Numbered from the stretch's first letter, positions 7,969 to 19,846 are shown. The stretch: 22,466 nt of DNA from a virus (IMGVR_UViG_3300032144_000044:1-22466), one strand, 5' to 3'. Translations and numbers: made by a program. Notes: generated by a model from the letters alone, not told the origin.

Positions 7969-7993
7969 CGATCTTCTCCCCCGATCGTTATTG

Positions 7994-8410
7994 TCACTTC
8001 GCCGCTTTCAGGAACTCTTCGAAGTGGCGAATTTTCATTTCGAGCGAAGCCGTGTGCTGGCGCTCCGCATCCAGCTCCTCTTCAAGCCGCGATTTCAGCT
8101 TCACCAGCCCGTAGCCGCGCTTCAGCGTTTGCCAGCGCAGCGGAATTTCGTTGCCGCAGAGATCCATCAGCGCATCAATCTTGTCCGGCGGGAAATGCGC
8201 CTGCCCGGAGCGAGCGCGAGACAACACGCCGGGGTCGATGCCCAGCTCGATGCAGATGCTCTTGTCCTGAAGGCCACCCTCTTCGACGCACTTGAAGCAC
8301 GCGCGCGTCAGCGAGGGAATTTGGCCAACCTGCTCATCAGAAAGGGTTTCTTTCACTTCGCGCACCACCCTGAGTTGTAGGGGTTGTTGGGGTGCTGCAA
8401 TCGACGGCAT
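7994..8410 (-). CDS. CII-like regulator, Phage_CP76 family
   Basis: 138 residues from an ATG at 8410 with GGAG about 11 nt upstream. The centre (residues about 48-95) has the signature of the CP76/CII family: LQDKSICIELGIDPGVLSRARSG as helix-turn-helix, then FPPDKIDALMDLCGNEIPLRW and KRGYGL. The C-terminus (about 105-135) is a probable coiled coil. In related phages this gene follows cro and activates lysogeny genes. A tR1-like terminator between it and the cro-like gene (8453-8481) is consistent with the lambda-like order. Confidence 0.88.
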   Translation of the reverse strand: MPSIAAPQQPLQLRVVREVKETLSDEQVGQIPSLTRACFKCVEEGGLQDKSICIELGIDPGVLSRARSGQAHFPPDKIDALMDLCGNEIPLRWQTLKRGYGLVKLKSRLEEELDAERQHTASLEMKIRHFEEFLKAAK

Positions 8411-8452
8411 AACGATTGACTCCAGTTGTAGGACGCACTTCGGGCCAAATAA

Positions 8453-8481
8453 AACCCGGCTCAGCGAGTGCTGGCCGGGTT
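8453..8481 (-). terminator. tR1-like terminator between cro-like and cII-like genes
   Basis: On the minus strand, AACCCGGC pairs with GCCGGGTT across a 13-nt loop and is followed by TTATTTGG, so the T-run is TTTTATTT. The first arm contains the last bases of the cro-like stop codon. Position matches lambda tR1. Confidence 0.75.
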
Positions 8482-8716
8482 AGGCGGTGAGTGGCGCTGC
8501 CCTGATATAGGCCCAGTCCACCGAATCATTGAGCTGCTCGCAGGTGACGACGCCACCGGTGAGCCGCTCGATGGTCGGGCAGTGATCGGCCGGCACAGGC
8601 CGCTCTCCAGTAATCCACTGGTGAACGGTAGGCGACTTCACCCCGAGAGCCCGCGCTAGCGCCGCCTGACTCCCGACAATTTCGGCCGCGATAGCGACCG
8701 GACTTTTCTCTTCCAT
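8480..8716 (-). CDS. Cro-like repressor, YdaS-type HTH
   Basis: 78 residues from an ATG at 8716. The segment IVGSQAALARALGVKSPTVHQW (about residues 13-34) is a helix-turn-helix of the YdaS/Cro family, followed by the typical ITGERPVPADHCPTIERLTGG and a short tail. The gene is transcribed away from the CI-like gene from a promoter with operators. By position it is Cro: it shuts off cI and adjusts early transcription. YdaS-type proteins are also annotated as antitoxins, but there is no toxin partner here. Confidence 0.9.
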   Translation of the reverse strand: MEEKSPVAIAAEIVGSQAALARALGVKSPTVHQWITGERPVPADHCPTIERLTGGVVTCEQLNDSVDWAYIRAAPLTA

Positions 8717-8743
8717 AGGTCTTCACCAGCAAGTGTCCGAGTG

Positions 8744-8772
8744 ACTGTAAGGCAATGCCTTATCAAAGGCAA
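8744..8772 (-). promoter_or_regulatory. pR-like promoter for the cro/cII/replication genes
   Basis: On the minus strand: TTGCCT (8772-8767), 17-bp spacer, TACAGT (8749-8744). Operator O1 fills the spacer next to the -10, so repressor binding should block it. Confidence 0.7.
8750..8760. promoter_or_regulatory. Operator O1 (OR-like)
   Basis: AGGCAATGCCT, the core of a longer palindrome TAAGGCAATGCCTTA (8748-8762). It is perfect apart from the odd central base and lies inside the pR-like spacer. The same core recurs at 9759 and 9784. Confidence 0.8.
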
Positions 8773-8782
8773 GGCATTGCTT
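8772..8782. promoter_or_regulatory. Operator O2 (OR-like)
   Basis: AGGCATTGCTT, i.e. AAGCAATGCCT on the minus strand, one base from the O1 core apart from the central base. It touches the -35 of the pR-like promoter and lies in the region of the opposing cI promoter. Confidence 0.7.
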
Positions 8783-8807
8783 TATGCCGGGGGTCGACGA
8801 CTAAGGT
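8777..8807 (+). promoter_or_regulatory. Possible pRM-like promoter for a leaderless cI transcript
   Basis: TTGCTT (8777-8782) and TAAGGT (8802-8807) are spaced 19 bp. The -10 ends 6 nt before the cI start codon at 8814, so transcription would begin at or near the ATG. No Shine-Dalgarno precedes the ATG, which agrees with a leaderless message as in lambda pRM. The -35 is weak, as expected for an activated promoter. Confidence 0.4.
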
Positions 8808-8808
8808 T

Positions 8809-8819
8809 AGGCAATGCTT
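8809..8819. promoter_or_regulatory. Operator O3 (OR-like), overlapping the cI start codon
   Basis: AGGCAATGCTT, matching the common core at 9 of 11 positions; the ATG of the cI gene is inside it. Binding here would repress cI, the role of OR3 in lambda. Confidence 0.6.
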
Positions 8820-9269
8820 ACTGGACCAGAACTCGGAAAAGCCATAGACCAAGCGCGCCAGCTCAAAGGAATGAGCAAGGCGGAGCTTGCCCGCGCCTTT
8901 AAGGTGACCCCGCCATCGGTTCAGGATTGGATTAAGTTTGGCCGAATCGATAAGGGCCGGCTCAACGACCTTTTTGCACTTTTCGCGGATGTTGTCGGGC
9001 CTGAGCATTGGGGGCTTTCGCGCGGCGACGTGATGGTCGTTGCTGAAGAGGGCGCAGCTTATGTTGTGGAGGTGAAGGCAAAGACGCCGGATCCTGCCCG
9101 CAATGCCTGGATTTCCATTTTTGACGAGATGGACACCAAAGAGGAGCAAGCGGCAGCTTTGGCCGTGATTAAAGTATTTAAAGCAACATATCGACCGCAA
9201 CCACAGGCGGGGCCATTAAAGAGAGCGGATGGCGGCCGGGATGCAACACGCAAGGAACGGAAAAAGTAA
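8814..9269 (+). CDS. CI-like lysogeny repressor without peptidase domain
   Basis: 151 residues from an ATG at 8814. The N-terminal segment LKGMSKAELARAFKVTPPSVQDWIKFGRI (about residues 17-45) is a helix-turn-helix of the CI/Cro class. The rest (to about 130) is a short mixed domain without the Ser-Lys pair of LexA-like autoproteolysis that would be expected in classical CI. The C-terminus is strongly basic (RKERKK). Induction may therefore need an antirepressor; a KilAC-type gene is present at 11131. It is divergent from the Cro-like gene and shares the operators between them. Confidence 0.88.
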   Translation: MLTGPELGKAIDQARQLKGMSKAELARAFKVTPPSVQDWIKFGRIDKGRLNDLFALFADVVGPEHWGLSRGDVMVVAEEGAAYVVEVKAKTPDPARNAWISIFDEMDTKEEQAAALAVIKVFKATYRPQPQAGPLKRADGGRDATRKERKK

Positions 9270-9369
9270 TCAGCCTCTGTACCCGAAGAAGCTGCTCGAC
9301 ATGCTTTAACTATGGGTGCAGCAGCCGCACGTATGACCACGACAAGCCCGGAAGCCAGGATGGGGATTC

Positions 9370-9705
9370 ATGATGGAATACAGCGTTATCGTGGCAGGAA
9401 CTGGATTTGAGGGGCGCGATGGGCGGATTCGGCTTGCTGCGAAGCCCGGGATGCCAGTCAAATTGGTGCCTGAACCGCAAAATAAATATGACCAGAACGC
9501 TATTGCTGTTTATCTACCTGTTAGAGCGTGGTACACGCTTTTCATCAGAACAGAAGTCCAAATCGGCTACATAAAGCGCGATCGAGCAGAATTCTTTACG
9601 AAGAAGATGCGCGAAGGCGGGAAGATTATCTCCGCGTCGATCAAGAGCATGTACACAGAGCAAAGCCACCCGCGAGTTTCTTTAACGGTAACCACCGACT
9701 GGTAA
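9370..9705 (+). CDS. HIRAN-domain protein in the rexAB position
   Basis: 111 residues from ATG 9370 (or 9373), with GGATGGGG upstream. It is nearly all one HIRAN domain: YSVIVAGTGFEGRDG, then VKLVPEPQNKYDQNAIAVY (about residues 30-49; the P-x-N-x-YD-x-NAI signature), then IGYIKRDRAEFFTKKM. HIRAN domains bind DNA ends or damaged/stalled DNA and occur in SNF2-type helicases and small phage proteins. Here there is no helicase part. The gene lies between the repressor and the pL-like operators, where lambda keeps rexAB, so expression in the lysogen from the cI transcript is likely. Confidence 0.85.
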   Translation: MMEYSVIVAGTGFEGRDGRIRLAAKPGMPVKLVPEPQNKYDQNAIAVYLPVRAWYTLFIRTEVQIGYIKRDRAEFFTKKMREGGKIISASIKSMYTEQSHPRVSLTVTTDW

Positions 9706-9758: not shown

Positions 9759-9769
9759 AGGCAATGCCT
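9759..9769. promoter_or_regulatory. Operator OL1-like
   Basis: AGGCAATGCCT, identical to operator O1 at 8750-8760. It abuts the -35 of the pL-like promoter. Confidence 0.8.
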
Positions 9770-9770
9770 A

Positions 9771-9799
9771 TTGACACATGATGAGGCAATGCCTAATCT
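9771..9799 (+). promoter_or_regulatory. pL-like promoter for the DGR/accessory/integrase operon
   Basis: TTGACA (perfect -35, 9771-9776), 17-bp spacer, TAATCT (9794-9799). One operator sits just before the -35 and another fills the spacer beside the -10, as in the pR-like promoter. The first DGR target starts 34 nt downstream of the -10. Confidence 0.85.
9784..9794. promoter_or_regulatory. Operator OL2-like
   Basis: Second exact AGGCAATGCCT, centred 25 bp from the first and ending in the first base of the -10. Repressor bound here should exclude RNA polymerase. Confidence 0.8.
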
Positions 9800-9832: not shown

Positions 9833-10336
9833 ATGGAAACCACCACCCAGCTCACCACCCTCAACCTGCCTCGCGTTGGCGCCCATTGGCCCGAGCAGGG
9901 CGGCATCTTCATCGGCCTGATTCCCGGCCAGAACGGCCAGCCGGACTACGCGCTGATCGCCCCGGACCACCAGGCCGCACTGTTCGAAAACGTGCAGTGG
10001 GGCCCGCGCGGCGTCGACGTACCCGCTGCCAACTCCGATTGGGACGGCGCGACCAACACCCTCGTGATGAACGGCGCCGGCAGCCAGCTCGCCCGCGACA
10101 TCCTCCAGCTCGAAATCGACGGCTTCTGCGGCTTCTACCTGCCGGCCCGCCATGAGCTGCGGCTGATGAAGCTCGTCGCTCCGCAATTGATCGTCGATGA
10201 CTGGCACTGGTCGAGCACGCAGTACTCCGCTCACCTCGCGTGGGACCAGGGCTTCGATGGTGGCAGCCAGCTCAACGGCGGCAAGGACAGCGCGCTTCGC
10301 GCTCGCGCAGTCCGCAGATTCTTAATTATTCAGTAA
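9833..10336 (+). CDS. DGR target protein 1 (DUF1566/C-type-lectin-like)
   Basis: 167 residues from an ATG at 9833; first gene after the pL-like promoter. The N-terminal part has a GGIFIGLIPG motif (about residues 23-32) shared with the two other targets, then a DYALIAPDH segment, a WGPRG motif and FYLPARHELRL (about 98-108). The C-terminus has the DUF1566/FGE-like ending, WHWSSTQYSAH through to ALRARAVRRF, which adopts a C-type lectin fold in DGR targets. Codons 129-155 form the variable repeat. There is no signal peptide or membrane segment. The ligand is unknown; diversification should alter a binding surface. Confidence 0.93.
   Translation: METTTQLTTLNLPRVGAHWPEQGGIFIGLIPGQNGQPDYALIAPDHQAALFENVQWGPRGVDVPAANSDWDGATNTLVMNGAGSQLARDILQLEIDGFCGFYLPARHELRLMKLVAPQLIVDDWHWSSTQYSAHLAWDQGFDGGSQLNGGKDSALRARAVRRFLIIQ
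10219..10321 (+). repeat. DGR variable repeat VR1 with 3' homing block
   Basis: 77 columns (10219-10295) align with the template repeat at 14357-14433 without gaps. There are 13 differences, every one at a template adenine. The next 26 bp (10296-10321) are identical in all three variable repeats and probably act as the initiation-of-mutagenic-homing site. Confidence 0.93.
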
Positions 10337-10348
10337 TTCAACCATTCC

Positions 10349-10363
10349 ACGCGCGCAGCGCGT
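10349..10363 (+). repeat. Hairpin after VR1
   Basis: ACGCGC-GCA-GCGCGT, a perfect 6-bp stem with a GCA loop, 12 nt after the stop codon. Equivalent hairpins follow VR2 and VR3. DGR homing is known to be stimulated by a hairpin or cruciform just downstream of the variable repeat. Confidence 0.85.
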
Positions 10364-10389
10364 TCGGCGCGAATTTTTGGAGGGATGCC

Positions 10390-10560
10390 ATGCAAATCAA
10401 TTTGCCGGACAACACGCCATTCATCGAGCTGGCGCGCTTCGCACACAGCATTGGCTGTGACGTGATCACGCGCAGCCCGACGTAACTGGAATTGCGGCCA
10501 AGCCCGGAAGCGCAGGCGCTGGCTCGCGCCCTCGATCGGGCGGAACCGCGCCGTGCATAA
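10390..10560 (+). pseudogene. Small gene interrupted by a TAA stop
   Basis: An ATG at 10390 with a good GGAGG site reads 31 residues to a TAA at 10483-10485. The same frame stays open beyond it for 24 more codons (LELRPSPEAQALARALDRAE...) to a TAA at 10558-10560, and the next small gene starts in the usual overlapping way at the end of that longer frame. The simplest reading is a 56-residue gene broken by one nonsense change. A truncated but functional 31-residue protein is possible. No family is recognised. Confidence 0.55.
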
Positions 10561-10705
10561 CGCACACGTCGTCGCCTGGTTGCACGCCTTCTACTGGTCG
10601 CTGGAGCAACAGGGGCGGCTCTGGTCGATGGCATTCGTTGGCCAATGGCACGACGACGAACTGAAGCTGGCACAGGAGGCCATGCAATGTCGCAGCAACA
10701 ATTGA
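10553..10705 (+). CDS. Small hypothetical protein
   Basis: 50 residues from a GTG at 10553 that overlaps the end of the preceding broken frame. The sequence is Trp/His rich (VVAWLHAFYWSLEQQGRLWSMAF) with an amphipathic C-terminal part. It overlaps the next gene start at 10687. No family is recognised, but the tight overlaps and codon use fit the operon. Confidence 0.55.
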   Translation: MHNAHVVAWLHAFYWSLEQQGRLWSMAFVGQWHDDELKLAQEAMQCRSNN

Positions 10706-10974
10706 TCAACCGCATCACCGAACTCGCCATCGATCTGTGCACACGGCGCATCGAGATCGTGCATGTGCGCTACGACGGCGCTGCCAACCAGCTGCAGATC
10801 ACCATCGGCGCCAGCTTCAACCGCCCGCCGCGACGGCAGATGAGTATCGATCTGGCTGAGCCGAGCGATAGCGAGCTGACACGCGCCCGTGTGCTGAAGA
10901 ACCTCAGCGAAGCGGCAGCGATGCTGGAAAACCTGAAGCGCTACCACAGCAACCAGCCCGAAGGGGTGGCGTGA
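10687..10974 (+). CDS. Small hypothetical protein
   Basis: 95 residues from the ATG at 10687, preceded by GGAGG; longer readings begin upstream inside the previous gene and lack a site. The first 25 residues are helical, followed by strands (IEIVHVRYDGAANQLQITIG) and a C-terminal helix (about 62-88, rich in Leu/Glu/Ala). No family is recognised. Its stop shares a base with the ATG at 10974. Confidence 0.75.
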   Translation: MSQQQLINRITELAIDLCTRRIEIVHVRYDGAANQLQITIGASFNRPPRRQMSIDLAEPSDSELTRARVLKNLSEAAAMLENLKRYHSNQPEGVA

Positions 10975-11129
10975 TGCGCAAGCCAATCCTCGGCCTGCAT
11001 GCCGACTACCGCAGCCTGCCGAAGATGCGCTTTCGCTGGAGCCGGCTGCGGATGGAGTGGGGGCGCGAATGCTGGCGCGTCGACAGCTGCGGAACCATTC
11101 GCGCCACTTGGTGGGAGTGGGAGCACTGA
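10974..11129 (+). CDS. Small basic, tryptophan-rich protein
   Basis: 51 residues from the ATG at 10974 (TGATG junction). It is rich in Arg and Trp (RFRWSRLRMEWGRECW, and WWEWEH at the end). Such small basic proteins are frequent in phage accessory operons. No family is recognised. It ends 1 nt before the ATG of the KilAC-domain gene. Confidence 0.6.
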   Translation: MRKPILGLHADYRSLPKMRFRWSRLRMEWGRECWRVDSCGTIRATWWEWEH

Positions 11130-11130
11130 A

Positions 11131-11544
11131 ATGCAGGTACACGCCGGCATCACCATCGCAGCAGCAGCACAGCAACTCGGCATCGGTAGCCGAACCCTGT
11201 TTCAACTGCTCCGCGATCACGGCGTGCTCAGCAGCAACAACATTGCAACCCGCCACTACATCGTCAGCGGCGACTTCATCAACCAGGAGCGCAGCGCGTT
11301 CAAGCAGGGCACCCACATTCGTCGCTGGTACACGGTGGCACTGGTCACCGGCCGCGGCATGAGCCTGCTGCAGGAGATCGTCGGTGGAGTGGCAGCGAAT
11401 GGGCAAGTGGTGGTGGCAGAGCAGGTGCAGCCGCTACCGGATCAGCGCAGCGATGTGCGACCAGGTGATGAAGTACGACGCCTGGGCGTACACAACGGAA
11501 TCAGCAACACCATGGGGCGCGCTCGGCACACGTCGGGACGCTGA
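11131..11544 (+). CDS. KilAC-domain protein (antirepressor-type C-terminal domain)
   Basis: 137 residues from the ATG at 11131. Residues about 7-90 match the KilAC pattern of phage antirepressors: ITIAAAAQQLGIGSRTLFQLLRDHGVLSS as winged-helix core, then a YIVSGDFINQ segment and a VTGRGMSLLQEIVGG ending. There is no separate Bro-N or KilA-N domain, so the protein is a free-standing KilAC domain. The last 45 residues overlap another credible gene in a different frame and may be unimportant or the result of a frameshift. An antirepressor role would suit a CI lacking self-cleavage; this is inferred. Confidence 0.75.
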   Translation: MQVHAGITIAAAAQQLGIGSRTLFQLLRDHGVLSSNNIATRHYIVSGDFINQERSAFKQGTHIRRWYTVALVTGRGMSLLQEIVGGVAANGQVVVAEQVQPLPDQRSDVRPGDEVRRLGVHNGISNTMGRARHTSGR

Positions 11545-11641
11545 ATCAGCCAGGAAATTGTGCGAGGAGCACCGCAATGCTGCAGAGAGCGAAAGGGGTT
11601 CAGTCAATGAAGCGCGCCAACCAGCTGCTGACGATGCGTGA
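11399..11641 (+). CDS. Small hypothetical protein overlapping the KilAC gene
   Basis: 80 residues from the ATG at 11399, with GGAG about 9 nt before it; a GTG at 11384 is an alternative. The first half has the look of a conserved short phage protein (YRISAAMCDQVMKYDAWAY, then LGTRRDAESARKLCEEH). It overlaps 146 nt of the KilAC frame and 65 nt of the next gene, which is unusual in this operon. One of the three frames is probably longer than the real product. Confidence 0.55.
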   Translation: MGKWWWQSRCSRYRISAAMCDQVMKYDAWAYTTESATPWGALGTRRDAESARKLCEEHRNAAESERGSVNEARQPAADDA

Positions 11642-11858
11642 CCAGCTCGCCACCCAGCTCGGCGAAAAGTACCGGCCCAGCATCGAGACCTACATGCCTT
11701 TCGTATCAGCAGCAGTAGCGCGCTGCGGTTGCGCGATCACCGCGGCGAACGAAGTGATCCAGCTGCTTGGCGATATGGGCGATGACATCGCCGTCAAGCG
11801 GCTGGTGACTTGTGCCGCGCTGGAGCTGGCACTCGGAACGCTGCCGGTGGCGGCATGA
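11577..11858 (+). CDS. Small hypothetical helical protein
   Basis: 93 residues from the ATG at 11577, chosen because GAGGAG lies 7 nt upstream; an ATG at 11607 is possible. The sequence is strongly helical with alternating hydrophobic faces (VARCGCAITAANEVIQLLGDMG, then VKRLVTCAALELALG). No family is recognised. Its stop overlaps the next ATG (ATGA). Confidence 0.75.
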   Translation: MLQRAKGVQSMKRANQLLTMRDQLATQLGEKYRPSIETYMPFVSAAVARCGCAITAANEVIQLLGDMGDDIAVKRLVTCAALELALGTLPVAA

Positions 11859-11959
11859 ACAGGCGCCAGCGTCACAGCGCATATCCACTACTGATCACGG
11901 TCGGGCTGATTCTCGGCTGGTACGCACTCGGCATCGCGGCTTACTTGGCTCAACCGTGA
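11855..11959 (+). CDS. 34-residue single-span membrane peptide
   Basis: ATG at 11855 overlapping the previous stop; TGA at 11957-11959. A basic N-terminus (NRRQRHS) precedes one hydrophobic helix (PLLITVGLILGWYALGIAAYLA). It is followed by an overlapping GTG. Small membrane peptides of this kind occur in phage early operons; no function is claimed. Confidence 0.6.
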   Translation: MNRRQRHSAYPLLITVGLILGWYALGIAAYLAQP

Positions 11960-12299
11960 TCCTGATCGCCACCTACGACAGCGACAAGCAGCAGGGCGGC
12001 GAGCCCCGCTGGCACAACCCGATGCCAGCAGGGCGGCGAGCCCCGCTGGCACAACCCGATGCCAGCAGGGCGGCGAGCCCCGCTGGCACAACCCGATGCC
12101 AGCAGGGCGGCAGCACTGGTTCCTGCGAATGCTCGGATACGGCGCTGATGGCTCGAAATCAGATCGACAACTGAGGGTGAAGCAACCATGCACCTATCAC
12201 GAACTGAGAGCGCAGCTGATCGAGCAAATGCTCGACGAAATTCGCGAGGAAGTTGGTGGCGTCGTGCGCTTTCAGTTCTGGGTCTACAAGGCGAGGTGA
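11956..12299 (+). pseudogene. Gene with frame broken by 37-bp tandem repeats
   Basis: A GTG at 11956 overlapping the previous stop begins ILIATYDSDKQQGGEPRWHNP. Reading then runs into three tandem 37-bp copies. Because 37 is not a multiple of 3, the present frame ends at 12174 with low-complexity sequence. If only one copy were present (74 bp fewer) the same start would lead in frame into the credible downstream sequence ending VRFQFWVYKAR at 12299, a protein of 89 residues. A copy number of 1, 4 or 7 would keep the frame. The gene is therefore broken or phase-variable. The product family is not recognised. Confidence 0.6.
11988..12111 (+). repeat. 37-bp tandem repeat, three copies plus a partial fourth
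   Basis: Copies at 11988-12024, 12025-12061 and 12062-12098 are identical except the first base; about 13 bp of a fourth follow. The unit begins CCAGCAGGGCGGCGAGCC and ends CACAACCCGATG. Confidence 0.95.
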
Positions 12300-12301
12300 A
12301 T

Positions 12302-12517
12302 ATGGAAATCATCAACACCGAAATCGAAGCCGCGGCGCGCATGAAATCGCTCGCCAACGTGGCCGGCGAACGCCGGGAGTTCGGCTACATCGAACGGCGC
12401 GGCACCTACCACGTGGGGCAGACCCGATACATCGAGGCGGTCTACGGCATGCAGCCGTTGGGGCGCTATCGCAACAAGGGCGCCGTGCGCCCACAACCAC
12501 TGAGGGCAGCACTGTGA
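12302..12517 (+). CDS. Small hypothetical protein
   Basis: 71 residues from the ATG at 12302, preceded by GAGGTGAAT. It starts with a helix (MEIINTEIEAAARMKSLANV) and continues basic (ERREFGYIERRGTYHVGQTRYIEAVYG). No family is recognised. The stop overlaps the GTG of target 2 by 4 nt (GTGA), implying translational coupling with that target. Confidence 0.75.
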   Translation: MEIINTEIEAAARMKSLANVAGERREFGYIERRGTYHVGQTRYIEAVYGMQPLGRYRNKGAVRPQPLRAAL

Positions 12518-13113
12518 GCAATGAAATCCCGACCATTCCCGGCACCCCGCTCGAAGGCGGCTTCTACGCCGGCCGCATCCGCGTTGGCGACGATGTTTTC
12601 GCACTGATCGTCGCGCCGAAAGCCGAGGGCGATCACGACAATATCGAGTGGGGCAATCGCGGCAAAGAAATCGCAAACGCTGGCAGTTACTTCGACGGCC
12701 GCGCCAACACCGTCGCCATGGCTGAGGCCGGCAGCGAGGTCGCGCAATGGGCGCTGCAGTTGCGCATCGCCGGCTTCGAAGACTGGTACCTGCCGAGCCG
12801 CGACGAGCTGGAGATCTGTTACCGCAATCTGAAGCCGACCACCGAGACGAACTATGTGTGGCGTCACGGCGACAACCCGAGCAGCGTGCCGGTCGGTTAT
12901 CCCTATAGCCAAAACAGCCCGGCAATGACGACTGCCGAACCGTTCCGCGAAAACGGTGCAGAGGCATTCGTCGACACCTGGTACTGGACCAGCACGCTGT
13001 GCTCCGCTCACGTCGCGTGGAGCCAGGACTTCGGTGATGGCCTCCAGTTCAACGGCGACAAGGTCAGCGCGCTTCGCGCTCGCGCAGTCCGCAGATTCAA
13101 AGTCATCAATTAA
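12514..13113 (+). CDS. DGR target protein 2 (DUF1566/C-type-lectin-like)
   Basis: 199 residues from the GTG at 12514 (GTGA overlap; GAGGG upstream); upstream in-frame codons lack a start with a site and run through another gene. It shares GGFYAGRI, WGNRGKEI, and WYLPSRDELEI (about residues 90-100) with the other targets, has an extra 30-residue insertion before the C-terminal region (NYVWRHGDNPSSV...), and ends WYWTSTLCSAH through ALRARAVRRF. The insertion makes it the longest DUF1566-like core of the three. The last 26 codons before the ending are variable. No signal peptide. Confidence 0.93.
   Translation: MSNEIPTIPGTPLEGGFYAGRIRVGDDVFALIVAPKAEGDHDNIEWGNRGKEIANAGSYFDGRANTVAMAEAGSEVAQWALQLRIAGFEDWYLPSRDELEICYRNLKPTTETNYVWRHGDNPSSVPVGYPYSQNSPAMTTAEPFRENGAEAFVDTWYWTSTLCSAHVAWSQDFGDGLQFNGDKVSALRARAVRRFKVIN
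12996..13098 (+). repeat. DGR variable repeat VR2 with 3' homing block
   Basis: The 77 aligned columns are 12996-13072. There are 15 differences from the template, all at template adenines. The 26-bp shared block is 13073-13098. Confidence 0.93.
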
Positions 13114-13129
13114 TCCATTCAACCATTCC

Positions 13130-13146
13130 AGCGCGCGCAGCGCGCT
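13130..13146 (+). repeat. Hairpin after VR2
   Basis: AGCGCGC-GCA-GCGCGCT, a perfect 7-bp stem, 16 nt after the stop codon. Confidence 0.85.
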
Positions 13147-13173
13147 CGACGCGAATTTCTGGAGCATGGAGCC

Positions 13174-13779
13174 ATGAGCAACAGCAACTCGGTAACCCTG
13201 ACAGTCGGATCGGCGCGCATCGAAGTGCCAGCGCGCGACGTGGTCTCGGCCATTCTGGCCAAGCTGACCAGTGATCAGTCAGCAGTGGTGGAAAGCCCCA
13301 ACGCTGCGCCCGCCATTGGTCAATTCTGGCCCGGTCAAGGCGGCATCTATGCCGGCCTGATGCGTGGCCACGATGGCAACCCGGACTATCACCTGATCGT
13401 GCCGACCGATCCGCGCGGCTTCGTTCGCGAGATCGCATGGGGCTCTCAAGGTAAGGAGGAGGCCGGCGCCTGTTCAGACTTCGATGGGCAGGCCAACACG
13501 ACTGCGCTGGCGAAATCGAAGCATGACCACCCGGCTGCAGAGTGGGCTGACGCCCTCGACATCGAGGGCCATGCCGACTTCTACCTCCCTTCACGTCGTG
13601 AGCTGCGCCTGTGCTGGGTGAACGTGCCGGAGCTGTTCGATGAAGGCTGGTACTGGTCGAGCACGCAGCACTCCGCTCTCTACGCGTGGAACCAGGGCTT
13701 CGGTGATGGCGGCCAGGGCATCAGCGACAAGGACACCGCGCTTCGCGCTCGCGCAGTCCGCAGATTCGTCAGTCATTGA
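13174..13779 (+). CDS. DGR target protein 3 (DUF1566/C-type-lectin-like)
   Basis: 201 residues from the ATG at 13174. Unlike target 1 it has an extra N-terminal segment (about residues 1-45, VTLTVGSARIEVPARDVVSAI) that may be an oligomerisation or attachment domain. Then come WPGQGGIYAGL (about 50-60), WGSQGKEE, FYLPSRRELRLCW, and the ending WYWSSTQHSAL through ALRARAVRRF. It lies directly upstream of avd. It has no signal peptide. The duplication of the whole unit (gene end, hairpin, conserved GAATTT and ribosome-binding sequence) indicates the three targets arose by module duplication. Confidence 0.93.
   Translation: MSNSNSVTLTVGSARIEVPARDVVSAILAKLTSDQSAVVESPNAAPAIGQFWPGQGGIYAGLMRGHDGNPDYHLIVPTDPRGFVREIAWGSQGKEEAGACSDFDGQANTTALAKSKHDHPAAEWADALDIEGHADFYLPSRRELRLCWVNVPELFDEGWYWSSTQHSALYAWNQGFGDGGQGISDKDTALRARAVRRFVSH
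13665..13767 (+). repeat. DGR variable repeat VR3 with 3' homing block
   Basis: The 77 aligned columns are 13665-13741. There are 12 differences at template adenines and one other (T to C at 13669). The 26-bp shared block is 13742-13767. Confidence 0.93.
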
Positions 13780-13795
13780 GTAATTCAACAATTTG

Positions 13796-13812
13796 ACGGC
13801 GCGCAGCGCCGT
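13796..13812 (+). repeat. Hairpin after VR3
   Basis: ACGGCGC-GCA-GCGCCGT, a perfect 7-bp stem, 16 nt after the stop. The changes relative to the VR1 and VR2 stems are compensated in both arms. Confidence 0.85.
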
Positions 13813-13829
13813 TCGCGAGTTTTTTCAGC

Positions 13830-14186
13830 ATGGCCCTGCATCACCAGCTACCGATTTACAAACTGGCCTATGACCTGCTGAGCACGGCGGTTGATGCCAC
13901 GCGGAACATTCCGCGCGACTTCAAACGTCTGATCGGGGAGAAGGTGCGCGAGGAGTGCGTCGAGCTGACGGTCTTGATTTTCAAGGCCAACGTCGCGCGC
14001 GACAAAGTGCCTTATCTGGAGCAACTGCTGGAGCGTCTGCAGGTTGTGGAACTGCTGCTGCGCCTGTCGCATGACAAGCGCTTTATCGGCCACAACCAGT
14101 ACGCGAAGGCGATCGAGATCACCGATCAGATCGGCAGGCAAGCCAATGGCTGGAAGAAGCATTCAGCAGCGTCGCCCGCTGTCTGA
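13830..14186 (+). CDS. avd: Avd, DGR accessory variability determinant
   Basis: 118 residues from the ATG at 13830. The pattern is that of Avd/four-helix-bundle proteins: LPIYKLAYDLLSTAVDATRNIPRDFKR at the N-terminus, four long helices without Gly or Pro breaks, and a C-terminal QYAKAIEITDQIGRQANGW motif (about 90-110). Avd forms a basic pentamer that binds the DGR reverse transcriptase and template RNA and is required for mutagenic homing. It lies between the third target and the template repeat, the canonical order; the reverse transcriptase that should follow is missing. Confidence 0.92.
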   Translation: MALHHQLPIYKLAYDLLSTAVDATRNIPRDFKRLIGEKVREECVELTVLIFKANVARDKVPYLEQLLERLQVVELLLRLSHDKRFIGHNQYAKAIEITDQIGRQANGWKKHSAASPAV

Positions 14187-14356
14187 GCGTCACGGCGCTC
14201 AGACCTGTGCGACTTTGAATCTGGTCGTGCCGCTGGCCCATGAGGCCACCGACAGGCGCAACAGGGAAACCACCGGCAACTGCCGGCAGGTCTCGCGCAG
14301 TTTCCCGGCTGACAGGCAACCGCCTTCGGTCGGGCGACGTGGATAGCACGACATGC
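14181..14356 (+). ncRNA. Putative 5' part of the DGR template RNA
   Basis: A gene-free spacer between avd and the template repeat. It begins with a 9-bp hairpin, GTCTGAGCG/CGCTCAGAC with a 6-nt loop (14181-14204), that contains the avd stop, and continues with further self-complementary GC-rich blocks (CCGGCAACTGCCGG near 14273). Template RNAs of other DGRs extend upstream of the template repeat and are structured; that this stretch does so is inferred. Confidence 0.5.
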
Positions 14357-14433
14357 GCAGTACTCCGCTCACAACGCGTGGAACCAGAACTTCGATGATG
14401 GCAACCAGAACAACAACGACAAGGACAACGCGC
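14357..14433 (+). repeat. DGR template repeat (TR), 3'-truncated
   Basis: 77 bp with 27 adenines; in the register of the targets it reads as eight AAC codons plus GAC, GAT and AAG. The AAC bias prevents stop codons after adenine mutagenesis. It is not translated: in that register a stop lies at 14310-14312 upstream. Matching with the three variable repeats ends at GCGC, and the 26-bp 3' block present after each variable repeat is absent here. Confidence 0.93.
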
Positions 14434-14460
14434 CTATCAGCAGTACCAGGAGCTATTGAA

Positions 14461-14910
14461 ATGACAGCTATCGAAGAGAAGGCGCTGCGGGAGCTGTCAC
14501 AGAAAGCTGCGACTGATTGTGAATTGTTTGTATGCAGGCATGGGCATATTGACGCCGTAACTCTCATTGCCCTGCTCGACACCATCGCGGAGCTGCGGCG
14601 TGCGGTAGAAGAAAACACTAACTGGTATGACAAGTATCAGCGCGACGTTGAGGGGCTAAACAATGAGGGTGATCCAATAGGCGGCGACCCACCGCGCGGG
14701 TTGAGGCACATCGCAGCCGAAGCAAGAGAGCTGCGCGTAGAACTCGCCGCGATCCGGGCGCTGGAGCCGGTGGCGTGGGTTCGGTTTCGCTCAGATGGCG
14801 GAATCGAGGGGCCGATACTCGACAGCCGCATGGAGGAGGTGCGTAAGCGCTCTGGTGTTTGGACTCCGCTCTACGCCCTCCCCCAACCAGCACCGACTGA
14901 GGAAGGCTGA
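14461..14910 (+). CDS. Ead/Ea22-like phage accessory protein
   Basis: 149 residues from the ATG at 14461, with AGGAG 8 nt upstream; an upstream in-frame ATG at 14353 would translate the template repeat and is rejected. The N-terminal half is helical (about residues 3-70), and the C-terminus has the EPVAWVRFRSDG ... PLYALPQPAP pattern found in Ead/Ea22-like proteins of lambdoid accessory regions. No biochemical function is known. The ATG overlaps a TGA in another frame that closes a short stretch described in the findings. Confidence 0.75.
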   Translation: MTAIEEKALRELSQKAATDCELFVCRHGHIDAVTLIALLDTIAELRRAVEENTNWYDKYQRDVEGLNNEGDPIGGDPPRGLRHIAAEARELRVELAAIRALEPVAWVRFRSDGGIEGPILDSRMEEVRKRSGVWTPLYALPQPAPTEEG

Positions 14911-16992: not shown

Positions 16993-17138
16993 CTGAACCA
17001 GCGCGTGCCGGCCGCTCGGCGCTGATCGAGATCATCGCTCGCCAAATCGTGAGGGCGCATCTGGCGGCCCAGGTTGCCGGGCAGCCCCCTCAAGGTCACA
17101 ATCCCGGCCGACCCGCCCTCCAGCCAGCCGCCAGATAG
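16989..17138 (+). CDS. 49-residue hypothetical protein before the integrase
   Basis: ATG at 16989 overlapping the previous stop (ATGA) and ending at TAG 17136-17138, 7 nt before the integrase start. It is Ala/Arg rich with a helical N-terminal half and a Pro/Gly-rich end. An excisionase-like role could be imagined from position, but no HTH is seen. Confidence 0.5.
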   Translation: MTEPARAGRSALIEIIARQIVRAHLAAQVAGQPPQGHNPGRPALQPAAR

Positions 17139-17145
17139 CCAACCC

Positions 17146-18741
17146 ATGCTTGTCGCCGTCTACTGCCGCTACAGCTCCGATCGCCAGCGCGAAACCTCCA
17201 TCGCTGACCAGCTCCGAGTTTGCCAGACCTTCGCCGACCAGCGCGGCTGGAGCCTGGTGGCGATGCACAGCGACGAGGAGGTCAGCGGTAGCACGCCGGT
17301 TCGGGCGCGTCGCGGTGGCGCTGCACTGCTGGCTGATGCAATGGCCGACCGGTTCGGCGCGCTGGTGCTGGAAGGGCTCGACCGTCTCTCGCGCGACCTG
17401 GTCGAGCAGGAGACCATCGTGCGCCGGCTGGAGCACCGCGGCATCCGGATCATCGGCGTGTGCGACGGCTATGACTCAGAGGCCACCGGGAAGAAGCTGC
17501 ATCGCGGCATGCGCGGGCTGATCAACGAGGTGTACCTAGACGACCTCCGGGCCAAGACTCACCGCGGGCAGGCCGGGCAGGTGTCGCGCGGCTACTCGGC
17601 CGGCGGCGGCGGGTACGGCTACCGGTCAACGCATGACGGCACCGGATACCGTATCGAGATCGACGAAGACCAGGCGCGCTGGGTGCGCTGGATCTTCGAG
17701 CACTTCGCCGAGGGCTGGTCGAGCAAACGGATCGTCGCCGAGCTGAACCGGCTGCGGGTGCCGAGCCCGCGCGGCGGCACCTGGGCGGTCTCGGCCGTCT
17801 ACGGGAGCGCCGCGAAGGGCTGCGGCATCCTGCACAACGAGCTCTACGTCGGCCGCTACATCTGGAACCGCAGCCAGTGGGTGAAGGATCCCGACACCGG
17901 CAAGCGCCAGCGCTTCGAGCGACCGCGCAGCGAGTGGCTGATTGAGGAGCGGTCCGCGCTGCGGATCATCGACCAGGCGATCTGGGATGCCACGCGGGCG
18001 AGGTTCTCGACGTCGTATAAGGAAGGCGGCACGAAAGGGAAGGGGCGCGCGCCGCGGTCACTGCTCGGCGGGCTCATGAAGTGCGGTTACTGCGGCGGGG
18101 CGGTCGTGGCGATCAATGGCAAGCTCTATGGCTGTGCCACAAAGCATGACCGAGGGGCGGTGGTCTGTCGTGGAGTGTTCGCGCCGCGGCAGGAAACCGA
18201 AACACGGATTCTCGCGGGCGTTCGGGAAGAGCTGCTGCGGCCGTCAGCCATCGCAGAGATGCAGCAGATGGTCACTGAGATGCTGCGCGCCGAGTTGGCG
18301 GTAGGAGAAAGCGAGGCGAAAGCAGCACGCGGTCGAGTGGTCGAGCTGGAACGGGAGATCGATCGACTGGTCGAGGCGATTGCATCGGTAGGGATTTCTG
18401 ACGCGCTGACTCAGCGGCTGCGAAATGCCGAAGCCGAACTGGCGTCCGTCCGAAGAACAGCAGCGACGTCGTCAGGAAAGAAGGTTGAGATCCCGAACCT
18501 CAAGAGCATCTATCGCGAACAGGTCATGAACCTGCAAGAAGCACTTCGGAGCGATATTCAACAAGCGCGCAATGCGCTGAGGGAAATGATCGGGCCCATC
18601 ACTGTCGTCGAAAGAAACGACGAAGTGTGGGCCCAGATCGATACAGGCCCGGAAGCTATGTTGAAGGCTTCTGGTCTGTATATAGGATTGGTAGCGGGGG
18701 CCTGCTTCGGTTCCAATATACGGGAGATCAGGATCAGCTAG
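17146..18741 (+). CDS. int: Large serine integrase
   Basis: 531 residues from the ATG at 17146; in-frame starts further upstream overlap the preceding gene and lie before the catalytic motif. The resolvase domain (1-150) begins YCRYSSDRQ with the nucleophilic serine at position 10, followed by GLDRLSRDL near 87-95. The recombinase domain follows (GYSAGGGGYGYR, then the IFEHFAEGWSSKRIVAELN helix pair). A zinc ribbon comes next (CGYCGG ... GCATKHDRGAVVC, about 312-340), and a coiled-coil segment (about 385-470). It integrates the phage at attB/attP. The C-terminal tail is hydrophobic and unusual. Confidence 0.93.
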   Translation: MLVAVYCRYSSDRQRETSIADQLRVCQTFADQRGWSLVAMHSDEEVSGSTPVRARRGGAALLADAMADRFGALVLEGLDRLSRDLVEQETIVRRLEHRGIRIIGVCDGYDSEATGKKLHRGMRGLINEVYLDDLRAKTHRGQAGQVSRGYSAGGGGYGYRSTHDGTGYRIEIDEDQARWVRWIFEHFAEGWSSKRIVAELNRLRVPSPRGGTWAVSAVYGSAAKGCGILHNELYVGRYIWNRSQWVKDPDTGKRQRFERPRSEWLIEERSALRIIDQAIWDATRARFSTSYKEGGTKGKGRAPRSLLGGLMKCGYCGGAVVAINGKLYGCATKHDRGAVVCRGVFAPRQETETRILAGVREELLRPSAIAEMQQMVTEMLRAELAVGESEAKAARGRVVELEREIDRLVEAIASVGISDALTQRLRNAEAELASVRRTAATSSGKKVEIPNLKSIYREQVMNLQEALRSDIQQARNALREMIGPITVVERNDEVWAQIDTGPEAMLKASGLYIGLVAGACFGSNIREIRIS

Positions 18742-18841: not shown

Positions 18842-19846
18842 TCACGGAACGAACTCGGCTGTATTGCTATTGCCGGCAGGCAGAGATGCCAGATCAGCGC
18901 GCTTGGTGAAGGTTGGGCCTGCCGTTACGTCATAAAGTGCGAGAAACGGCGTTATAAAGTGCGCCACTGCAATCAAGCTGTCGTCTGCAGACCACGATAC
19001 GCCATGCGCCGCGCTGGATGGCAGCCCGCTAGGATTGGACCCGCTTGTCAGCAGGGAAAGATCGGACTGGTTATAGACCCGCAAAAATGGCGACCCGCCT
19101 TGGGCGATCGCGATCTTTGTTCCATCGTGAGAATAAGCCACGTCATTCACAGTAGAGCCAGGCAGGGTCGCCGGGTTTGTTCGCTTGCTCCATCCTGATA
19201 CGGTGTAAACAGTTATGTACGGGGACGATGCGTGTCCAATGGAAAGCTCGGCGCCGCTCGGAGACCATGCCGCGCACTGCCCGGTGCTTGCAGGTAGCGT
19301 TGATGGGTCGGCGACCCTTGACCAGTCCGAGGTATTGTAAATAGTGATGTAAGGCGACGTGGCATGGCAGACAACCAGCTTTGATCCATCTGGAGAGAAC
19401 GCCGCATAGTTGGCGTTCCCTGTTGGTAGCACTGATGGGTTTGATATTTTTGTGAGAGTCGTTCCAGAAACCGAATAAATAGTGATATACGGGCTTGTGT
19501 TGTGAGCCACAGCAAGCAGGCTCTTATCAGGCGCCCAGGAGACACCGTTTGCGGTTCCTGTTGGAAGAGTTGCGGGGTCTGCCCACTTTGACATCCCTTC
19601 AACGGTATAGACCAGAACCCTAGGTGAAGCTGTATCAGCAAGGGCAATCAAAGTTCCGTCATTTGTTATCGCAATCTCGTTCACCGTAGATGGTGGGGCA
19701 GACGATGGCGCGCTGCCGACGCTGAAGTTATCCAGGTATCTGGTCAAAAATGGTGACGTGGCATGACCTACGAACAGGTAGTTACCAGGCTGAACAACAG
19801 GAACACCACAAACTGCTCCAATAAGGCCGCGAGGAATCATGGACAT
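18842..19846 (-). CDS. Seven-repeat beta-propeller tail protein
   Basis: 334 residues from an ATG at 19846. Seven repeats of about 44 residues follow the pattern [hydrophobic]-x-[V/I]-[G/A]-H-x-[T/S]-S-P-[Y/F]-[I/L]-x-[I/V]-Y ... LP ... WSPDG, consistent with a WD40-like seven-bladed propeller. The N-terminal 18 residues are separate. It is the last gene of the tail operon and overlaps the DUF2793 gene by one base. A receptor-binding or tail-tip role is inferred from position and fold. The family is known in phages only as hypothetical beta-propeller proteins. Confidence 0.85.
   Translation of the reverse strand: MSMIPRGLIGAVCGVPVVQPGNYLFVGHATSPFLTRYLDNFSVGSAPSSAPPSTVNEIAITNDGTLIALADTASPRVLVYTVEGMSKWADPATLPTGTANGVSWAPDKSLLAVAHNTSPYITIYSVSGTTLTKISNPSVLPTGNANYAAFSPDGSKLVVCHATSPYITIYNTSDWSRVADPSTLPASTGQCAAWSPSGAELSIGHASSPYITVYTVSGWSKRTNPATLPGSTVNDVAYSHDGTKIAIAQGGSPFLRVYNQSDLSLLTSGSNPSGLPSSAAHGVSWSADDSLIAVAHFITPFLALYDVTAGPTFTKRADLASLPAGNSNTAEFVP

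What the first reader, a model, noticed from the sequence alone, without database searches (positions are those of the whole stretch)
9833..14433. Diversity-generating retroelement with three target genes in a phage early operon
Three DUF1566/C-type-lectin-like genes end in variable repeats that align without gaps to a non-coding template repeat at 14357-14433. Over 77 columns VR1, VR2 and VR3 differ from the template at 13, 15 and 13 positions. Of these 41 differences, 40 fall on the 27 template adenines; only one (T to C at 13669) falls among the other 50 columns in three comparisons. Adenine-specific variation is the hallmark of mutagenic homing. An avd gene lies between the targets and the template. 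Most phage DGRs described have one or two targets in tail-fibre genes; three targets in a pL-like operon is unusual.
Basis: partly seen in the sequence, partly recalled or inferred. Interest (0 to 1): 0.95.

Follow-up and report, generated by a model that had tools for sequence, protein, structure and literature searches.

The report
Phage mutation cassette missing its enzyme
A temperate phage carries three genes that were clearly rewritten by a protein-diversifying retroelement, but the element's reverse transcriptase and the priming end of its template are gone, so it looks like a recently disarmed diversity generator whose varied products have been kept.

Summary
Avd, a complete RT-15 leader RNA and post-VR hairpins are present, and operator-like palindromes flank a promoter-like site before target 1, supporting 'pL-like'. 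(1) There is no reverse transcriptase in the 22.5-kb record, not even a fragment. (2) The TR is cut at 14433: all three VRs continue for 26 identical bases (the IMH end), which RT-bearing relatives also have in their TRs. In relatives the RT follows the TR directly: 102 of 107 testable IMG/VR loci found by the leader alone have a full RT, 5 a disrupted one, none lacks it entirely. Three targets are not unusual: nine relatives with full RT have three. Best reading: an amputated DGR, recipients intact and donor broken, recently enough that the TR has not drifted. Similar losses recur in related phages, often where an HNH endonuclease gene has replaced TR and RT. An RT in the unsequenced structural module, misassembly, or a helper acting in trans are not excluded.

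The parts
8750..8819 (.). three operator-like palindromes AGGCAATGCCT (0-1 mismatch) at 8750, 8772 and 8809, around the gap between the YdaS/Cro-like gene (8480-8716, -) and the repressor-like HTH gene (8814-9269, +)
   Evidence: HTH assignments
9759..9799 (+). two exact AGGCAATGCCT operator-like sites (9759, 9784) flanking a -35-like TTGACA (9771-9776) upstream of target 1: pL-like promoter. The -10 is weak and the promoter scan called no site here.
9833..10336 (+). target gene 1 (167 aa), first gene of the operon
   Evidence: phrog_4245 4e-28; orthologs at 64-70% identity at the same distal position in L057, L040
10219..10295 (+). VR1; 13 differences from TR, all at adenines
10296..10321 (+). 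IMH-type constant tail of VR1 (TTCGCGCTCGCGCAGTCCGCAGATTC), missing from the TR
10349..10363 (.). hairpin after VR1 (6-bp stem, loop GCA)
12514..13113 (+). target gene 2 (199 aa, GTG start)
   Evidence: Lcl_C/DUF1566 2.5e-9, phrog_4245 3e-32
12996..13072 (+). VR2; 15 differences, all at adenines
13073..13098 (+). IMH-type tail of VR2, identical to that of VR1 and VR3
13130..13146 (.). hairpin after VR2 (7-bp stem, loop GCA)
13174..13779 (+). target gene 3 (201 aa)
   Evidence: Lcl_C 5.9e-6, below Pfam's cut-off; phrog_4245 5e-34; profile match to HbP1, PDB 8q4e, E 6e-9
13665..13741 (+). VR3; 13 differences, 12 at adenines
13742..13767 (+). IMH-type tail of VR3
13796..13812 (.). hairpin after VR3 (7-bp stem, loop GCA)
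13830..14186 (+). avd (118 aa), intact
   Evidence: NF033474 1e-16 below its cut-off; up to about 80% identical to avd of RT-bearing relatives
14170..14358 (+). RT-15 RNA (RF03018), complete leader ending at the TR start
   Evidence: 183.5 bits, gathering 82, positions 1-192 of 192
14357..14433 (+). template repeat, cut short: lacks about 26 nt (IMH*) present in relatives' TRs
14433..14434 (+). deletion/replacement junction: TR end, spacer and RT (about 390 codons in relatives) absent
   Evidence: junction not found elsewhere in IMG/VR
14461..14910 (+). first gene after the junction, no family, own ribosome-binding site AGGAG
   Evidence: one weak relative
17074..18741 (+). serine integrase at the operon's far end (context)

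Best explanation
This is an amputated DGR in the early (pL-like) operon of a lambdoid temperate phage. Shown: three target genes were written from this TR; the targets, their IMH tails and hairpins, avd and the RT-15 leader are intact; the last ~26 nt of the TR and the whole RT are absent from the record. Inferred: one deletion or module exchange at 14433/14434 removed the IMH* end, the spacer where cDNA is primed, and the RT, leaving the element unable to make new mutagenised cDNA in cis. The three lectin-type proteins are kept as fixed variants. The loss is recent, since TR and VRs still agree at 149 of 150 non-adenine positions. The products are probably intracellular early proteins binding variable host factors; that role is a guess from location and lack of an obvious signal peptide.
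For: No RVT_1 in the record; tblastn of six relative RTs finds only the VR tails, E > 6. RT follows TR directly in nearly all avd-bearing relatives. In a leader-based survey of IMG/VR, 102 of 107 testable loci have a full RT, 5 a disrupted one, 0 none. The TR's 3' constant end is present in all RT-bearing loci tested and absent only in four RT-disrupted loci and the window. All three window VRs keep an identical 26-nt tail the TR lacks. RT-15 complete. Hairpins present. Published BPP-1 work: the spacer between TR and brt recruits bRT-Avd and primes cDNA at IMH*, and inactivating bRT, Avd or TR cut repair to ~1e-9 (PMC12875486). Same class of loss in whole records of Medea1, Aurca01 and vB_PaeS-D14O.
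Against: The record is an incomplete linear fragment lacking most of the structural module, so a displaced RT cannot be excluded. The exact junction is seen in one record only. avd and TR show no decay, which would also fit an element still in use. The IMH* and spacer requirements come from BPP-1 and were not tested in this clade.
Confidence: 0.7

Rival explanations
1. Assembly artefact: the contig joins the DGR half of one phage to the early genes and integrase of another at the TR, and the real phage has a normal TR-RT.
For: One record only; the junction is not seen in other IMG/VR records (though records very near the window may be hidden); genes just after the junction have almost no relatives in the related loci.
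Against: The TR 3' end is unique in the record, so a repeat-driven misjoin has no obvious shared word; the junction lies just upstream of an intact ribosome site and start codon; no sharp GC step at 14433; gene order on both sides fits one lambda-like genome opened in its structural module.
Confidence: 0.12
2. Complete DGR with the RT moved to the part of the genome not in the contig; the shortened TR still works.
For: The structural module is missing from the record; avd, leader and TR are well preserved.
Against: No displaced RT was found in RT-less relatives' whole records (several are fragments); every intact relative has RT next to TR; the TR lacks its IMH* end.
Confidence: 0.08
3. Satellite-like use: the targets keep being rewritten in trans by a helper DGR (TR-RNA, Avd, RT) of a co-resident prophage.
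For: All recipient features are intact; avd-TR-brt can act in trans in BPP-1 (PMC3240598); VRs of RT-less Aurca01 and Medea1 differ at 15 of 32 adenine columns and 0-1 of 70 others.
Against: No IMG/VR sequence matches the TR with adenines masked; in Aurca01/Medea1 target a, 4 non-TR differences appear to cluster just upstream of the VR, which fits recombination better than retrohoming.
Confidence: 0.07

Closest known systems
Bordetella phage BPP-1 DGR (mtd-avd-TR-brt)
   Same: Adenine-specific TR-to-VR writing, C-terminal VR, avd upstream of TR, IMH-type constant end and a hairpin after the VR.
   Different: Three small early-operon targets instead of a tail fibre; RT, spacer and TR 3' end missing here.
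RT-15-associated DGR clade in temperate phages (Cruim01, LPPA56, Haboob, phPA-G, SC_8, Magia, QDWS; most of IMG/VR L004-L034)
   Same: Related targets and avd and the same TR type; the RT-15 leader was checked in L007 and L013 and is annotated in Cruim01; up to three targets.
   Different: They keep the full TR end and the RT directly downstream.
RT-less relatives (Medea1, Aurca01, vB_PaeS-D14O, L018/L166, L025/L027, L105, L149, L173)
   Same: TR and RT lost in whole or part; targets kept where the flank is held.
   Different: They keep an RT C-terminal scar of about 23-66 residues and several carry an HNH endonuclease gene in place of the lost part; the window has neither, and alone keeps 77 nt of TR with three intact targets and avd.
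Treponema denticola target genes in isolates lacking core DGRs (PMC4891356)
   Same: Targets remain after loss of RT and TR.
   Different: Bacterial targets, many with lipoprotein signals; neither RT nor TR was found in those isolates, whereas avd, leader and most of the TR remain here.

Membership tests
Diversity-generating retroelement (complete) | TR and VR differing almost only at TR adenines | tested here: met
   40 of 41 differences at adenines, P about 2e-17
Diversity-generating retroelement (complete) | DGR-type reverse transcriptase | tested here: not met
   No RVT_1 in the 22,466-b record, no tblastn match to relatives' RTs; the rest of the genome is not held
Diversity-generating retroelement (complete) | Accessory protein Avd | tested here: met
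   bAvd 1.1e-15, phrog_3206 1.4e-31
Diversity-generating retroelement (complete) | TR with its IMH* end, as in relatives | tested here: not met
   TR stops at 14433; the end is in all RT-bearing relatives tested
Diversity-generating retroelement (complete) | VR at the 3' end of target, IMH and hairpin after it | tested here: met
   Identical 26-nt tails; stems of 6-7 bp with loop GCA
Diversity-generating retroelement (complete) | Ongoing retrohoming | not testable with these tools
   Needs reads or culture
RT-15 RNA (RF03018) | Covariance-model match above gathering score | tested here: met
   183.5 vs 82 bits, full length
C-type-lectin-like DUF1566/Lcl_C target | Family match | tested here: met
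   Target 2 above Pfam's cut-off, target 3 below it, target 1 by phrog_4245 only; profile of targets matches HbP1 8q4e
C-type-lectin-like DUF1566/Lcl_C target | Lectin fold in a structure model | tested here: inconclusive
   Model of target 3 has pLDDT under 50 across the VR and no convincing PDB match

The most novel reading that the evidence does not exclude
RT-less phages of this clade are DGR 'satellites' or 'cheaters': they keep target genes with working recipient sites and have them rewritten by the full DGR of a co-resident prophage, or by swapping VRs with it, so diversity is shared in a phage community without each member carrying the enzyme.
Probability: 0.08. Interest if true: 0.8.

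Novelty: new variant of a known kind. Interest (0 to 1): 0.5.

Why it matters
DGR surveys generally start from the RT, so amputated cassettes like this are easily missed. With complete relatives and several independent losses, the clade makes testable what happens after diversification stops: whether evolved binders are kept, decay, or are exchanged. It also points to a class of DGR targets that are early-operon, apparently intracellular phage proteins rather than tail fibres, and to HNH endonuclease genes as agents that may displace the DGR core.

Tried and rejected
RT hidden as short, frameshifted or distant ORFs: rejected. TR as a translated target end: rejected; the target-frame reading of the TR runs into a stop by 14461 and no listed ORF carries it. 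Chance repeats: rejected. HNH replacement in the window itself: no endonuclease at the junction; the HNH gene at 33-365 lies elsewhere. Near DNA matches among phages: none. Fold of target 3: uninformative, with no convincing PDB match.

Full report
OBSERVATION. VR1, VR2 and VR3 differ from 14357-14433 at 13, 15 and 13 positions without gaps, 40 of 41 at the 27 template adenines. The chance of this is about 2e-17, and only the copy at 14357 behaves as template. 21 of the 27 adenines are changed in at least one VR. In the target frame the template reads QYSAHNAWNQNFDDGNQNNNDKDNA, rich in Asn.

CONTEXT. The window is a whole IMG/VR record of 22,466 b, probably a fragment. Gene order is lambda-like: endolysin, primase, CII-like and YdaS/Cro-like genes on the minus strand; a repressor-like gene, targets, avd, TR, small genes and a serine integrase on the plus strand; tail genes on the minus strand at the right end. 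The capsid and packaging module is missing. Palindromes AGGCAATGCCT (0-1 mismatch) lie around the gap between the Cro-like and repressor-like genes (8750, 8772, 8809), and two exact copies (9759, 9784) flank TTGACA just before target 1. The pL-like reading is therefore reasonable, although the consensus scan called no promoter there. The targets have no obvious signal peptide (by eye).

WHAT IS MISSING. No RT domain is in the record, and tblastn with six RTs of relatives finds only VR tails at E > 6. In relatives the TR runs about 26 nt further (for example TTCCGCGCTCGCGCCGTCCGCAGAT in L007) and the RT ORF follows at once. In the window the three VRs carry an identical 26-nt tail, TTCGCGCTCGCGCAGTCCGCAGATTC, but the TR stops at 14433 and continues into unrelated sequence and a gene with its own ribosome site at 14461.

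WHAT IS KEPT. Avd is intact. The RT-15 RNA (RF03018) is complete, ends at the TR start and scores higher than in the three other loci of the same search where it was found. Each target has a hairpin with loop GCA 53-57 nt past VR column 77; across 83 VRs of this clade 46 have such stems of 6 bp or more, against 10% of random windows.

SURVEYS. Avd searches gave 31 IMG/VR and 9 genome loci, to which named phages were added. Nearly all avd-bearing loci have the order targets-avd-TR-RT. Three targets with full RT occur in L013, L026, L032, L034, L037, L038, L040, L041 and L057, so three is not unusual. A search blind to RT and avd, using a 20-mer of the leader, gave 118 stretches; of 107 testable, 102 have a full RT and 5 a disrupted one; none has zero RT trace.

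HOW IT MOST LIKELY WORKS. In BPP-1 the spacer after TR recruits bRT-Avd and primes cDNA at the TR's IMH* end, and inactivating bRT, Avd or TR nearly abolishes activity (PMC12875486); efficient homing needs IMH and a hairpin at the target (PMC3240598). By that model the window has working recipients and a broken donor. TR and VRs agree at 149 of 150 non-adenine positions, so the donor was probably lost recently. The targets persist as fixed variants (inferred).

RELATED LOSSES. Whole records of Medea1, Aurca01 and vB_PaeS-D14O have no RVT_1 domain. In Medea1/Aurca01 a NUMOD4-HNH gene sits between the targets and a 23-29-residue RT scar. D14O and L018 carry related HNH endonucleases (48% identity) between avd or a cut TR and an RT scar; L105 and L149 have similar HNH-like ORFs (by eye). 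L173, L025 and L027 are plain deletions. Aurca01 and Medea1 VRs differ from each other almost only at adenine columns although both lack RT, so the adenine signature alone does not show that the genome bearing it can mutate.

KNOWN AND NEW. DGRs, their accessory parts and target remnants without RT or TR in Treponema denticola are published (PMC4891356), and viral DGR targets described so far are mostly tail proteins (PMC8144416). I found no paper, among those searched, on RT-amputated phage DGRs or on HNH genes displacing the DGR core; the library is not complete.

VERDICT. The signature is real, but this is a disarmed DGR, not a complete one. The main doubts are the missing part of the genome and the single observation of the junction.

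Noticed in passing
L045 9311-9805, L046 9314-9805, L064 3967-4587, L018 10587-11033, L105, L149: HNH-type endonuclease genes (NUMOD4/HNH_3 or phrog_374/3377; L105 and L149 by resemblance) sit where TR and RT should be, with right boundaries in the RT C-terminus near NSYFGL/QASHS: recurrent displacement of the DGR core.
   Followed up: partly
L045 and L046, targets at 7986-8597 and 8674-9294: RT-less phages Medea1 and Aurca01 share near-identical target bodies (4 of 498 differences in target a) but their VRs differ at 15 of 32 adenine columns and 0-1 of 70 others: VR exchange or rewriting in trans, or differences older than the RT loss.
   Followed up: partly
window 14353-14910; RT ORFs in L006, L007, L013, L022: In this clade the RT reading frame is open through the TR (MATRTTTTRTT...), so the RT start may lie inside the template; in the window that frame is fused in frame to the next gene.
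   Followed up: partly
window 11989-12111: Perfect tandem repeat, 3.3 copies of a 37-bp unit, between targets 1 and 2.
   Followed up: no
L116: RT cut just after YVDDF with the frame running into other sequence, while TR, avd and targets remain.
   Followed up: no
window 18842-19846 (-): Tail-end gene with matches to several beta-propeller/WD40 families.
   Followed up: no
window 9370-9705: HIRAN-domain protein (Pfam 7e-12) between the repressor-like gene and target 1, 65% identical to one in L007/L008.
   Followed up: no
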